A stretch of DNA of 46,026 nucleotides from Podaxis mareebaensis (Eukaryota; Basidiomycota; Agaricomycetes; Agaricales; Agaricaceae). The notes below the pieces were generated by a model. That model had not been told where the DNA came from and did not search any database. It saw only the letters and a list, made by a program, of their open reading frames with translations. Within the stretch, counting starts at the first letter, position 1. Each line of letters opens with the position of its first letter. Position numbers and translations under genes: made by a program. The stretch covers positions 1 to 46,026 of the forward strand of contig JAEUWP010000379.1 in the NCBI GenBank assembly GCA_018524725.1. The letters run 5' to 3'. This document shows positions 31,180-44,799 of the stretch, one piece after another.

Positions 31180-31437
31180 AGGTTGAACTCTGCGCGGGCC
31201 AGTTGAATCTGTGTTTGTCACAACTGAACTCTGTGTGCATCACAACTGAACTCTGCGTGCATCACAACTGAACTCTGTGTGTGTCACAACTCAACTCTGC
31301 GCGTGTCACAACTCAACTCTGTGCACGTCACAACTCAACTCTGCGCACATCACAACTCAACTCTGCACACATCACAACTCAACTCTGTGCGCATCGCAAC
31401 TCACTCAATTCAGAAAATACACTCCAACTACCAAAGC
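31180..31437 (+). repeat. Left subterminal repeat array
   Basis: About eleven degenerate copies of a 20-21 bp unit, roughly cacaact(c/g)aactctgcgcgt. They begin less regularly near 31183 and end in a unique 47 bp segment (31391-31437). The variable part of each unit is always an alternating purine-pyrimidine run (gcgcgt, gtgcac, gcacac). The array occurs inverted at 44431-44618. Confidence 0.85.
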
Positions 31438-31582
31438 TGAACTCTGTGTATTATTACCATTCCGCTCAACTTTGCATATATAAAGTTTGAGTTCTATGAT
31501 TCAAGAACCAAGCATTGTAGGATGTATACTCATAAATGACTATTGAATATAAGAATGACCTAAGGTTATTACATCCACTATT

Positions 31583-32918
31583 CTATATCTGAAGCTGGGA
31601 TGTATTAGACCAATTGGGATAGAAGACTCCAAGCCGATGGAATACATCCTTCCGGATGAAATGGGCATAGCATACCCGGTCACCAGAGCCCCATGCCTTC
31701 ACCTTGTGCTGGAGAAGATTTCCACACAACTGAATTACAGTACCAGGACCATATTCCAAACTGGCTCCAATCTCAGGAAGCTGAAATGTAGCAGTGGTGT
31801 AGGACCCTACAGATACCAGCTGGTCATACCATTCATATGATCCATGCCGATCACAGTGCTTCCTTGTCTTGTGATTTGTGATAACTGACATGCCTGAATA
31901 AAGAGAAGTCCACTGTTGGGCATATTCCTGTGTGCTATCCTTCTCTCTTAGCTTCTCTAGAGCTTCCTTGCCAGCCTCATACAGACCAGGGTGTGTAATG
32001 GATGTAACCAGATTGAGGTAATTCTCAACCTGGCTGGTATTGTTCAACCAAATATTAACCCCTTGGTCCATATTCTTCTGGACTGATAATGAAGCTTGGA
32101 TCTCTGTCTTAGGATCAAACTACAAAGTCTGATTAGCACAGAAGGTTATGATCGGGGTGAATTTTTGAGACATACTCCATGTCCTAGTGGAAACCATCCA
32201 GGAGAAAATGTCTGTGTGCCATTTTGCATGGTCCATGTTCCATCATTATCTAAAAATGCAGCTGGGGTAGTTCTCCACATATTTCCCTTCACTGTGCCTT
32301 TCAATACTGAGTCAAGGTTCTTTGTGGCATTGATCAATTCTCCCTAATTATAAACTGGCATTAGCACATATGGGAATATGAAAAGCTTGGTGTATTTTAC
32401 CTGTTGTGCTTCTGATAGTAAATGGGGAAGATACCAGACCAGGATATGGCCAACCTTATCTACAATAATGCATGGCTCAGATATCTTCCCCAGTACTACA
32501 TTCTTGAGAATGCATGTGATGGGTTTGGGAGCTCTTAACATAGAGACATCACAGTCTAGCACCACTAAAATAAATATGTTTTAGCTTTAAAGTTAATTTA
32601 ACAACACAGGCAAGATCTTACCTTGGTTTTGAAATGCTGCAGCAAGAACTGTGACTAGCCTTCTCTCCTCTTGTTGATCTTGAGAGCGGTTCTGACCAGG
32701 GCCTGCATTTTGAGTGACCTTTGGAAGGGCAGGTCTACAAGAATGATAAAATCAGATGCTTATAATTAGAAGTAGCCTATAAATACATACTTGCCAGATA
32801 TAGCATTGTGCTTCAACCTTTGCTGAAACCTCTCTTTGATTTGGGCAGCCTTGGTCTCAAGCTTGGTGTGTTTCTTCTTCTTATCACTTCCGCATTGGCG
32901 GTGATTTTGTTGTCCCAT
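31583..32918 (-). CDS. TET/JBP-like 2-oxoglutarate/Fe(II) dioxygenase
   Basis: Five exons, start 32918 (MGQQNHRQCG), with a basic N-terminus rich in Lys. The next exons carry LVTVLAAAFQNQ, VLDCDVSMLRAPKP, LVWYLPHLLSEAQQ, then GELINATKNLD and GNMWRTTP. The last exon holds the catalytic core: MSVITNHKT, KHCDRHGSYEW, the HxD iron ligands; WYDQLVSVGSY; LEYGPGTVIQLCG; and LLQHKVKAWGSGDRVCYAHF, giving the distal His and the Arg for 2-oxoglutarate. This matches the basidiomycete TET/JBP family, which oxidises 5-methylcytosine in DNA; exact substrate not proven here. No premature stop was seen, unlike most other genes in the element. The reading frame ends 146 bp inside the left repeat array. Confidence 0.75.
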
Positions 32919-33514
32919 AAGAGTAGCCTAGAGGGTAAGAGGTAGAAGAGTGGTCTAGAGAATGAGAAGTAGAAAAGAAACAGGTTGATGGGTTGGCTGG
33001 TGCTGTGCAGGAGTTTATGTCCATTGGATGGACAATGCATTATCCATCCAATAGTAAGCTATTGTGACAATCAAACAATAGGAACCGGACAAAAGGACTC
33101 AGAACACTGAAGCTCATGTATTGTAGAATCAATCATACAATCAAATCTCATTCACTGCACTTCTTTATAATTGTTGAAACAAAAGATTTCGGGTAAGCAA
33201 AAGTAAACTGGGCGTGCATGGCTTTGTTTAGTTGTGTTGTGCTAGGGGCATTTGTTTGGCAATGCCCTCTCGGAATGTTCTGGAGGGAGTGCTTCAACAC
33301 CCCATGCCCGGAATTTTTCTCTTGTTGCACTCCCCACTCATCGCAACCCCTACCGCCCATGTCGCATTGAACTGGCGCGTAATACCTTTGCCTGGGGTAT
33401 TGTGATGTCCTAGGGAAACGCAATTGGGGGGTACAGGCAAGGGGCCAAGGATGCCACGAACGTATGCCGTCCATGCCGCGTGGATTGGTTTCATGGGTGG
33501 GAGGTGACCACAAC

Positions 33515-33665
33515 ATGAGGCTGTGCCGGGCTTTATGCCACCCATGCACGTGATGTCCTTTGGGTGTTTTCTTCGTGTCTCCCAACAGTGTGAGGCCGTG
33601 TTGGGCTTCATGCCGCCTTTACACGTGACATCCTTCATACCGGACGTTTTCCTCGTGCATGGGTA
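33515..33665. repeat. Two-copy ~75 bp tandem repeat
   Basis: Two diverged copies of a unit running from tgaggc(t/c)gtg(c/t)(c/t)gggctt(t/c)atgcc, through cac(c/t) and cacgtga, to ttcctcgtg-like sequence. They precede the minisatellite and are not visibly coding. Confidence 0.6.
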
Positions 33666-42421: not shown

Positions 42422-44228
42422 ATGCCATCATTCCCTCGTTCTCGCACTGTCTCTAGCAAGTACAGATCCTCTGCTAAACATACACCTCGTCGACACCATC
42501 ACTATCGTCACATGCAAGATGACTCTACTCCACCTCCCTCTCAACTTAAATCCTGCTCTGTTGCTGAGCCCTCTGAAGGCAATTCCAACTCTGGCTCAGA
42601 ATCTGACTCCGATGCACAGGATTATGTGCCCTCTGATCCAGATGTCCTGTCCCTGGCTCCCTTGGCCTCAAGCTCAATTCCAGCTTCATCCAGCATCAAC
42701 ACCTCATCATCCCAACTTCTCAGTTCCATTAGTGAATGGAGCTCATCATGTCTTGGCTCTCAGGTCACCAATAGCCAGACTCGGGATTTGTTCAAGTCAA
42801 TCAGTTCCCTCCCAACATCATCTTCATCTTCTGCATTCACAATAGCTCGCCAAGAGACAAATGCAGGTCTTAGAAAGGTTGTAGGAAGGAATGTGGCATT
42901 AAAGCAGAAGCCAAAAGCATTACGGACTCAGGTATGCTGTATCTTGATGTTCTATTCAGATGCTTATTCTTTTGTACAGAAAGTAGAGACCACCATCTTT
43001 GCTGTTGGTCAAGTCATTGTTATTCCAAATGTGATTGAGCCGGTATGATGAGTCCTTCATATGAAAAATAGCTGAAACTATATCTGTATTAGGTACCTTC
43101 ACCAACGCCATTGGGACAACACTACCAGCTTGCAGGAAATAGTGCCTTAGGGAAGCTGAAGCTCTGGAATCTAGAATGGTCTAAGCTTGTTGCAGTGTTA
43201 GCTGTGGGGAATATGATTGAGTTTGATATGACTTGGTCTCATGATCAAGTTGAGGAAAAACTCAAATCTCTTTTCCCTGAAGCATTCTCTTGGCTGAAAG
43301 TGCTCCACTCCAGATCTCCTATTCATGGGTCTCAATGGCGTCTTGTCTGCAAAGAGCACTCATTTTATGTTGATAACGTGGACAAGCCAACTGGACGGGA
43401 TGTTTGGCAGGTTTGTCAACGTGATAGGGTCAAGTCTCTGGATCGCACTGTTTACATTGGTAATTGATGAATCTCTCATAATTTGATTGTCATTCTGAAA
43501 TATGATATTATAGCATTTACTCCTGGAATCCCAGATCCAGTTATCATCGGGTGGCAGCCACCAACAAGCATCTCATTTGAGCATATTTTCGATGCAACCT
43601 CCTCATCCGACCTTGAAGATCCCAGTTACCTTTTTGGAAGCAAGGCAACTAGCACGAACAATGCTCAGAGCAAGGGTTCTCATGAAAGCGCCAATGCTAG
43701 TGCATCTGATGTGGGAGATCAAATGGTTCCATTATTGGATAAAGGGAAGGGAAAAAAGCAGAAATATGCAATGAAAAGGTGTATGTATCTTTTGCTATGC
43801 TTCTATGATTCAGTTTGATAATACTTTGAGCTTGATAGGTTCTTCAAAGAAGCAGAAAGTTGATTACACTGAGGTCAGCTCTGAAAGCAGTGAGTTATCT
43901 TATTTCTAAACTCCTGAGGCTTGTTTACTTATGATATCTTACAGAAGTTGAAATTGTTCCACCCCCTCCAGCTCTGAGTATACTGGCATATGAACCGTCC
44001 ACTAGCACATCTACTAGCTCTGATGTGATGCTATTTGCTGGCCCTAGTCATGCCACTCCTGAGGTCAACAACTCAGCCATCATCTCACAGACCAAGCGTG
44101 CTAATACACCAGTGGATGACTCTGTATCTGATGCATTTAACTCTTCCCTGATTTTGGAGGAGCCAATTTTATCTCCTGGACCTGCTAACCGCTGGTGGGA
44201 GACAGGTCGTAGATTTGACTTCTCCTAA
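42422..44228 (+). CDS. Ser-rich element protein of unknown function
   Basis: About seven exons from MPSFPRSRTVSSKYR to WWETGRRFDFS. The N-terminus is basic, followed by long Ser-rich low complexity (SSSIPASSSINTSSSQ) and NAGLRKVVGRNVALKQKPKA. A more ordered middle follows: VETTIFAVGQVIVIPNV, KLWNLEWSKLVAVLAVGNMI, VEEKLKSLFPEAFSWLKVLH, QWRLVCKEHSFYVD. The C-terminus is again disordered, with a basic stretch KGKGKKQKYAMKR. The Lys/Arg runs suggest a nuclear or DNA-binding role, but I recognise no domain. It lies 93 bp after the transposase stop on the same strand and just before the right repeat array, so it belongs to the element. No premature stop was noticed. Confidence 0.6.
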
Positions 44229-44430
44229 GCTGCGATTCATTTTGTGTTTTTCCCCTCTTTTACAGTTCTGATTTTACTAGCCTTGGTTCTTTTAATTGCA
44301 TGGTGTCTCATAGAGCGTGTAGGACTGGCATTTCTCCAACTTTTACTTGATACTTGATGATTTTTAATAGTTTCCCATAATTGAATTCATGGTCTTTATG
44401 TTAGCTTCTCTTGGTAAAGGTTTGGACAAG

Positions 44431-44618
44431 GCTTTGGTAGTTGGAGTGTATTTTCTGAATTGAGTGAGTTGCGATGCATGCAGAGTTGAGTTGTGATGTG
44501 CGCAGAGTTGAGTTGTGACACACGCAGAGTTGAGTTGTGACGTGCACAGAGTTGAGTTGTGACACGCGCAGAGTTGAGTTGTGATGCATGCAGAGTTGAG
44601 TTGTGATGCACGCAGAGT
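44431..44618 (-). repeat. Right subterminal repeat array
   Basis: Inverted counterpart of 31180-31437: first the 47 bp unique segment (44431-44477), then seven to eight units of agagttgagttgtga plus a variable alternating run. It is shorter than the left array. The sequence beyond 44618 does not match the region left of 31180. Confidence 0.85.
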
Positions 44619-44799
44619 ATGGCGCTCCAACGTGGACAAAAATAAAATGTCCCGCACGAGCATCTTTTGCGTGCGAAAACGAGTTGCCGTGCAGAAAATT
44701 ATTTATCGTGTAATCAGTATATAGGTTACTCTATTAATGCCTTTCATTTTGCTTGCACGCGCAGGATCGTTTGAGCACGCAAACTCACACATCCACACA

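What the first reader, a model, noticed from the sequence alone, without database searches (positions are those of the whole stretch)
31180..44620. 13 kb transposon carrying a DNA-demethylase-type gene and a DDE integrase
Seen: inverted subterminal arrays enclose a TET/JBP-like dioxygenase, a PHD-like zinc-finger protein, a BTB-like protein, an rve-type DDE transposase and a Ser-rich protein. Known: fungal TET/JBP genes associate with transposons, mainly described for the KDZ class. Here the transposase is of a different appearance. Inference: an element that brings its own means to oxidise 5-methylcytosine, plus chromatin-type adaptors, to escape silencing. The combination may be undescribed.
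Basis: partly seen in the sequence, partly recalled or inferred. Interest (0 to 1): 0.92.

Follow-up and report, generated by a model that had tools for sequence, protein, structure and literature searches.

The report
Fungal jumping gene with DNA demethylase
This fungal genome, likely a mushroom's, holds copies of a large DNA transposon whose five shared genes include a DNA-demethylase-type enzyme, which would likely help the transposon escape the host's methylation-based silencing.

Summary
The unit is real. Its right array is cut at 44618 by a second element. Two more contigs (C100, C346) carry the same five genes in the same order and orientation: TET/JBP, zinc-finger, BTB-like, DDE transposase, Ser-rich. 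All five show fewer amino-acid-changing than silent differences. The window's TET is intact and resembles CcTET, with the catalytic HxD and two further CcTET residues. The transposase is an rve/rva_4 integrase. With TATGG..CCATA ends and 6-bp site duplications (2 of 4 short relatives), it fits the IS3EU superfamily, not KDZ. In this copy the transposase is broken by a LINE-like insert and, as modelled, an in-frame stop. Old copies have lost nearly every CpG, which points to methylation of these elements. The text read lists no such IS3EU in Agaricomycetes and no zinc-finger or BTB partners. I file it as a new variant of a known kind. The PHD and BTB labels stay weak, and no function was tested.

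The parts
31032..31185 (+). left terminal segment, TATGGCGTCATATTGGCCTAAAAATT...
   Evidence: recurs at C217 (99%), C350 (94%) and at both ends of short copies on C317, C8, C330 (76-79%); a similar TATGGCG end stands at C100:19742, where C100/C346 similarity begins at 19740
31186..31404 (.). left subterminal array of 22-bp units with a CGCGCG-derived core
31583..32918 (-). TET/JBP dioxygenase gene, 5 exons, 369 aa, intact
   Evidence: Pfam Tet_JBP, CcTET 7vpn/8jkk, exact GT-AG model
33758..34945 (.). 14-bp minisatellite between the TET and zinc-finger genes
35259..36962 (+). zinc-finger (PHD-like) protein gene, hand-drawn exons
   Evidence: relatives on C100, C346, C356, C162 (weak), C90, each of them a TET contig; eight invariant Cys in 3 copies
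37339..38106 (-). BTB-like protein gene, hand-drawn exons
   Evidence: relatives beside the transposase on C100, C346, C217, C424, C343, C49; fold label weak
38289..38588 (+). transposase, N-terminal exon (before the insert)
   Evidence: matches C100:27716-28009 and rva_4 loci on C217, C424, C343, C317
38657..40767 (-). LINE-like ORF1-only insert with poly-A, flanked by GGGGTGAATTC(T)
   Evidence: many copies genome-wide; duplication
40769..42325 (+). transposase, catalytic and C-terminal exons (rva_4/rve, DDE)
41816..41818 (+). in-frame TGA in the transposase as modelled
42422..44228 (+). Ser-rich protein gene, hand-drawn exons
   Evidence: relatives on C346, C343, C100, C199
44431..44617 (.). 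right subterminal array (inverted), truncated
44618..45898 (+). start of a second element (TATGGCGCTCCAACGTGG...) that cuts the right array; not part of the unit
   Evidence: 87% identical copy C253:72034-73314 begins at the same base

Best explanation
This is a copy of an IS3EU-like DNA transposon that carries a conserved TET/JBP dioxygenase, zinc-finger, BTB-like and Ser-rich gene beside an rve-type DDE transposase; the dioxygenase likely oxidises 5-methylcytosine on the element's own DNA and would so relieve host silencing. Shown: termini, gene order in three copies, fewer amino-acid-changing than silent differences in all five genes, TET catalytic residues in place, near-complete loss of CpG in old copies, and the disruption of this copy's transposase. 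Inferred: that the TET enzyme acts on 5mC of the element (above all in the CpG-derived terminal arrays, where the transposase would bind), that the zinc-finger and BTB-like proteins steer it or the transposase to chromatin, and that the Ser-rich protein is an accessory. This copy is predicted to be non-autonomous.
For: Same five genes, order and strands on C93, C100 and C346. TATGG termini at separate insertion sites. 6-bp duplications CTTAAG on C317 and GTGCCT on C307/C20. pN/pS window vs C100: TET .267/.731, DDE core .219/.799, BTB-like .298/.816, zinc finger .254/.859, Ser-rich .449/.712. TET aligns to CcTET with HxD, G331 and D337 kept (residue roles from PMC12730594). CpG o/e is 0.84 in the host flank, 0.28 in the element interior, 0.00 in a C346 stretch (1 CpG in 5551 bases) and 0.01 in a C199 stretch. 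The C253 relic of the neighbouring element keeps 0 of the 61 CpGs of the window copy. In 15 of 17 array units (two outermost left units do not fit the pattern and were left out) all 45 core dinucleotides are CG (12), TG (16) or CA (17). C5-methyltransferase domains lie on 4 contigs. With 7 TET and 12 rva_4 loci placed at random, 3 or more TET loci fell within 12 kb of an rva_4 locus in 2 of 100,000 draws.
Against: No expression, methylation or activity data. 9 of 12 rva_4 contigs show no TET match, so TET is not needed for the superfamily. C100's TET has lost the catalytic Asp of HxD and has a stop; C346 is decayed. Two of four short relatives with both ends show no 6-bp duplication (C8, C330). 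The window copy's own duplication cannot be read. The CpG loss also shows that TET did not protect these copies in the long run. The LINE-like insert (o/e 0.54) and the second element (0.96) in the same locus are not so depleted, so the depletion is not of the whole locus and may reflect age. Silent differences are near saturation, so the selection test is coarse, and it used hand-drawn exons.
Confidence: 0.62

Rival explanations
1. The accessory genes are passengers captured by chance or by nested insertion and do nothing for the element.
For: The locus does hold nested inserts (LINE-like copy, second element). Most rva_4 loci lack TET. BTB-like matches also occur on 4 contigs and zinc-finger matches on 2 contigs without rva_4 or TET.
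Against: Identical five-gene order in three copies and reduced amino-acid change in all five genes. A BTB-like gene lies divergent to the transposase on 7 of 12 rva_4 contigs, 1.0-1.1 kb from the core match on six and 3.1 kb in the window, where the insert lies between.
Confidence: 0.12
2. TET here makes a lasting modified base (5hmC or a derivative) or acts on 6mA, as a mark for the element, rather than removing methylation.
For: CcTET also acts on 6mA, and the two residues tied to that are kept. Oxidised methylcytosines are enriched in transposons of Laccaria and Coprinopsis (PMC8889193, passages).
Against: No partner glycosyltransferase or similar gene was seen in the Pfam scans.
Confidence: 0.2
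3. TET and the zinc-finger gene are a separately moving gene pair that different transposon superfamilies pick up; this IS3EU is one carrier.
For: The divergent TET/zinc-finger pair occurs on 6 of 7 TET contigs, weakly on C162 and C90. On C90 the neighbour is a CxC4 domain, which Pfam ties to KDZ transposases, with no rva_4 match.
Against: The ends of the C90 element were not found, and PF18758 itself did not match C90. On C356 and C162 the pair lies close to a contig end, so a transposase beyond it could not show.
Confidence: 0.35

Closest known systems
TET-bearing IS3EU transposons of Pucciniales (Kojima 2025, PMC12730594)
   Same: TAYGG..CCRTA ends, TIRs over 30 bp, 6-bp duplications, IS3EU transposase, TET gene on board
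   Different: Those place TET (PU type) between the transposase and an alpha-kinase gene. Here there is no alpha-kinase hit, the TET is CcTET-like (HxD, Gly, Asp), and the partners are zinc-finger, BTB-like and Ser-rich genes.
TET-bearing IS3EU of Tuber indicum (same paper)
   Same: IS3EU with TET
   Different: PE type, whose hallmark is HxE instead of HxD
Kyakuja/Zisupton (KDZ) elements with AG-type TET in Agaricomycetes (same paper; Iyer et al. 2014 recalled, paper not held)
   Same: CcTET-like dioxygenase in a mushroom-group DNA transposon
   Different: Transposase, ends and duplication length differ. None of the 20 contigs with a KDZ match is one of the 7 TET contigs.
GingerRoot / IS481EU (PMC10045372, passages)
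   Same: DDE transposase without an HHCC zinc domain; GingerRoot has 6-bp duplications and mostly TA..TA ends and clusters with IS3EU
   Different: no TET or chromatin-type partners mentioned in the passages read

Membership tests
IS3EU (IS3EU/GingerRoot) | TA..TA termini, in fungal TET-bearing ones TAYGG..CCRTA | tested here: met
   TATGG at C93 left, C100, C217, C374; TATGG..CCATA on C317, C8 and C307/C20; TATGG..CCGTA on C330. The window's right terminus is lost; the C350 end is altered.
IS3EU | 6-bp target site duplication in relatives with the same end | tested here: inconclusive
   2 of 4 short relatives with both ends (CTTAAG; GTGCCT across a contig break); C8 and C330 not
IS3EU | 6-bp target site duplication of the window copy | not testable with these tools
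   right end displaced by another element and the contig ends at 46026
IS3EU | rve-like DDE transposase | tested here: met
IS3EU | no HHCC motif upstream of the core | tested here: met
   no invariant or nearly invariant Cys or His upstream of residue 257 in those 27 relatives
IS3EU | groups with Repbase IS3EU transposases in a tree | not testable with these tools
   Repbase and the paper's supplements not available
TET-bearing IS3EU of rusts | alpha-kinase gene beside TET | tested here: not met
   no alpha-kinase among Pfam matches of 20 ORFs and 6 gene products of the unit; smaller ORFs not scanned
AG-type (CcTET-like) TET | HxD with Gly331 and Asp337 equivalents | tested here: met
   HCDRHGSYEWYD under HRDTSGPIEGMD of CcTET; numbering from PMC12730594. 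Tree placement not tested.
PE-type TET | HxE | tested here: not met
   HxD
KDZ transposon | KDZ transposase in the element | tested here: not met
   PF18758 matches on 20 contigs, none on C93
PHD finger | over the Pfam cut-off | tested here: not met
   best PHD score 10.8 bits (C100 sequence) against 24; eight Cys kept in 3 copies, first one lost in C346
BTB/POZ | significant match to a BTB profile or fold | tested here: inconclusive
   no BTB hit in 6 members, one CTLH at 0.05; profile best hit KLHL26 E 1.4; fold not predicted

The most novel reading that the evidence does not exclude
A mushroom-group IS3EU lineage carries a complete anti-silencing kit: a CcTET-like demethylase and a zinc-finger reader as a divergent gene pair, with a BTB-like adaptor, aimed at CpG-dense terminal arrays. 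The demethylase/reader pair moves as a module between transposon superfamilies, from IS3EU to KDZ-type elements or back.
Probability: 0.3. Interest if true: 0.7.

Novelty: new variant of a known kind. Interest (0 to 1): 0.5.

Why it matters
It would add IS3EU to the superfamilies that carry a CcTET-like demethylase, in a genome where three copies share the same five-gene set and where CpG loss likely records methylation of the same elements. That makes the anti-silencing idea testable: CpG-derived arrays are the predicted target, TET the predicted agent, and the zinc-finger/TET pair a candidate reader-eraser module.

Tried and rejected
Homologues of the zinc-finger protein in the large protein set: none of 250 candidates at E <= 0.001, with a hand-drawn query. 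TET relatives: 2 of 1534 candidates, Macrolepiota fuliginosa (69%, partial) and Agaricus bisporus var. burnettii (45%). The method needs shared 5-residue words, so this understates the family. Viral contigs: no relative of transposase or TET confirmed among 13 and 27 pattern matches. The transposase piece found no PDB sequence relative, so a public relative (P0001) was modelled; the fold matches list retroviral integrases, TnsB and MuA and do not separate IS3EU from other rve-like groups. Co-occurrence in other species could not be tested: no other fungal genomes are held, and protein hits carry no context. By script only TET and one transposase intron closed as exact GT-AG models; BTB-like, Ser-rich and the zinc-finger start did not. 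The typed TET sequence has one residue wrong at an exon joint (right version). I rejected the idea that the zinc-finger gene was the CCHC protein of the LINE-like insert: that ORF belongs to a separate repeat. Not held: Iyer 2014. Searches for print on this combination; one search found nothing but its phrase could not match the slash form.
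Full report
What was checked. The window is the whole of contig C93 of an unnamed 36.95 Mb genome in 429 contigs. Most named relatives among the 120 listed transposase hits, and both TET hits, are from mushroom-group species (the taxonomy is recalled), so the host is likely an Agaricomycete. That is inference.

Boundaries. The two inverted arrays are real. The segment just outside the left array, 31032-31185, recurs at C217 (99%) and C350 (94%) and at both ends of short copies on C317, C8 and C330 (76-79%). 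Those copies read TATGG..CCATA, or CCGTA on C330. Two of the four with both ends carry a 6-bp duplication: CTTAAG on C317, and GTGCCT for a copy that seems split between the end of C307 and the start of C20. C8 and C330 do not. On C100 the similarity to C346 begins at 19740, and TATGGCG stands at 19742, so two insertions at different sites share the same terminus. On the right, the window's array stops at 44618, where a second repeat begins (TATGGCGCTCC...). A copy on C253 begins at the same base, and the same motif starts repeats on C217 and C374. The window's true right end is therefore not in the contig. The end of C199 and the start of C350 look like a second, decayed copy broken inside its array, with the terminal segment outside it; joining them is inference.

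What is broken. A LINE-like insert with poly-A and an 11-12 bp duplication lies inside the transposase gene, and as modelled a TGA follows the catalytic part. This copy is predicted to be non-autonomous. In C100 the TET has lost the Asp of HxD and has one stop; C346's TET has five stops.

Copies. Family searches report lower bounds. TET/JBP domains lie on 7 contigs, rva_4 on 12, KDZ on 20 with none of them a TET contig. Five genes in the same order and strands: C93, C100, C346; on C100 the Ser-rich match is weak (5.6e-4 genome-wide; 4e-10 in a local comparison) and lies near the contig end. A BTB-like gene lies divergent to the transposase on 7 of 12 rva_4 contigs, 1.0-1.1 kb from the core match on six and 3.1 kb in the window, with the insert between; BTB-like matches also occur on four contigs without rva_4 (C390, C374, C410, C166). 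The zinc finger is divergent to TET on 6 of 7 TET contigs, all but C286, weakly on C162 and C90; two more contigs (C333, C153) have it without TET. With random placement, three or more TET loci fell within 12 kb of an rva_4 locus in 2 of 100,000 draws (contig structure ignored). On C90 the TET/zinc-finger pair has no rva_4 beside it but a CxC4 domain, which Pfam ties to KDZ transposases. This is a lead that the pair moves between superfamilies; the ends of that element were not found.

Selection and decay. Between the window and C100, pN is far below pS for TET, transposase, BTB-like and zinc-finger genes and somewhat below for the Ser-rich gene; silent sites are near saturation and exons are hand-drawn. 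CpG observed/expected is 0.84 in the left host flank, 0.28 in the element interior, 0.28 in C100, 0.00 in a 5551-base stretch of C346, 0.01 in a 2532-base stretch of C199 and 0.00 in the C253 relic of the second element; in the window the LINE-like insert has 0.54 and the second element 0.96. In the C253 relic 0 of the 61 CpGs of the window copy remain, while C before T or C changed to T in 11 of 142 and 9 of 129 cases and C before A in 41 of 181. The array units vary mostly where an ancestral CGCGCG core would have lost CpGs: in 15 of 17 units (the two outermost left ones do not fit the pattern and were left out) 45 of 45 core dinucleotides are CG, TG or CA. The genome has C5-methyltransferase domains on 4 contigs. 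The simplest reading is CpG methylation of these elements followed by deamination. It supports the pressure that a TET gene would relieve, but not that TET relieved it.

Known or new. Kojima 2025 (PMC12730594; text parts 1-5 of 7, a term search and figure legends read; supplements not readable) reports TET-bearing IS3EU in seven Pucciniales species (TAYGG..CCRTA, 6-bp duplications, alpha-kinase partner) and in Tuber indicum (PE type). In Agaricomycotina it names Kyakuja, Zisupton, EnSpm, Plavaka and Helitron2 only, and it proposes escape from methylation silencing. The words BTB, PHD and zinc finger do not occur in its main text. Passages of PMC10045372 give the IS3EU features used here. So the kind is known; the variant (Agaricomycete IS3EU, CcTET-like enzyme, zinc-finger/BTB-like/Ser-rich partners) was not found in the searches listed.

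Noticed in passing
window 38657-40767; L009-L038: A roughly 2.1-kb LINE-like repeat with poly-A encodes only a CCHC-type ORF1-like protein; several copies share the same 5' limit, so it looks like a non-autonomous ORF1-only element.
   Followed up: partly
window 44618-45898; C217, C253, C374: Second element with TATGGCGCWCCAACGTGG ends. On C217 it starts about 3 kb from an rva_4 transposase with a BTB-like neighbour, so it may be a related family without TET.
   Followed up: partly
window 45898-46022; C1, C199, C177: Another repeat begins inside the second element; a copy also lies on C199 next to the place where the match to window 43629 begins.
   Followed up: no
window 33758-34945; L005:3211-3424: A variable minisatellite lies between the TET and zinc-finger genes: 14-bp units in the window, 61-bp units on C100.
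   Followed up: no
L079 (C90:78600-83600): CxC4 (KDZ-associated) domain beside a TET/zinc-finger pair.
   Followed up: partly
L005:1161-1329 (C100): The sister element has a different subterminal array (49-bp unit, with GCGCG) at the same place.
   Followed up: no
C253, C346, C199 copies: Near-complete loss of CpG in old copies, although the paper read states that hypermutation is not detected in Agaricomycotina.
   Followed up: partly
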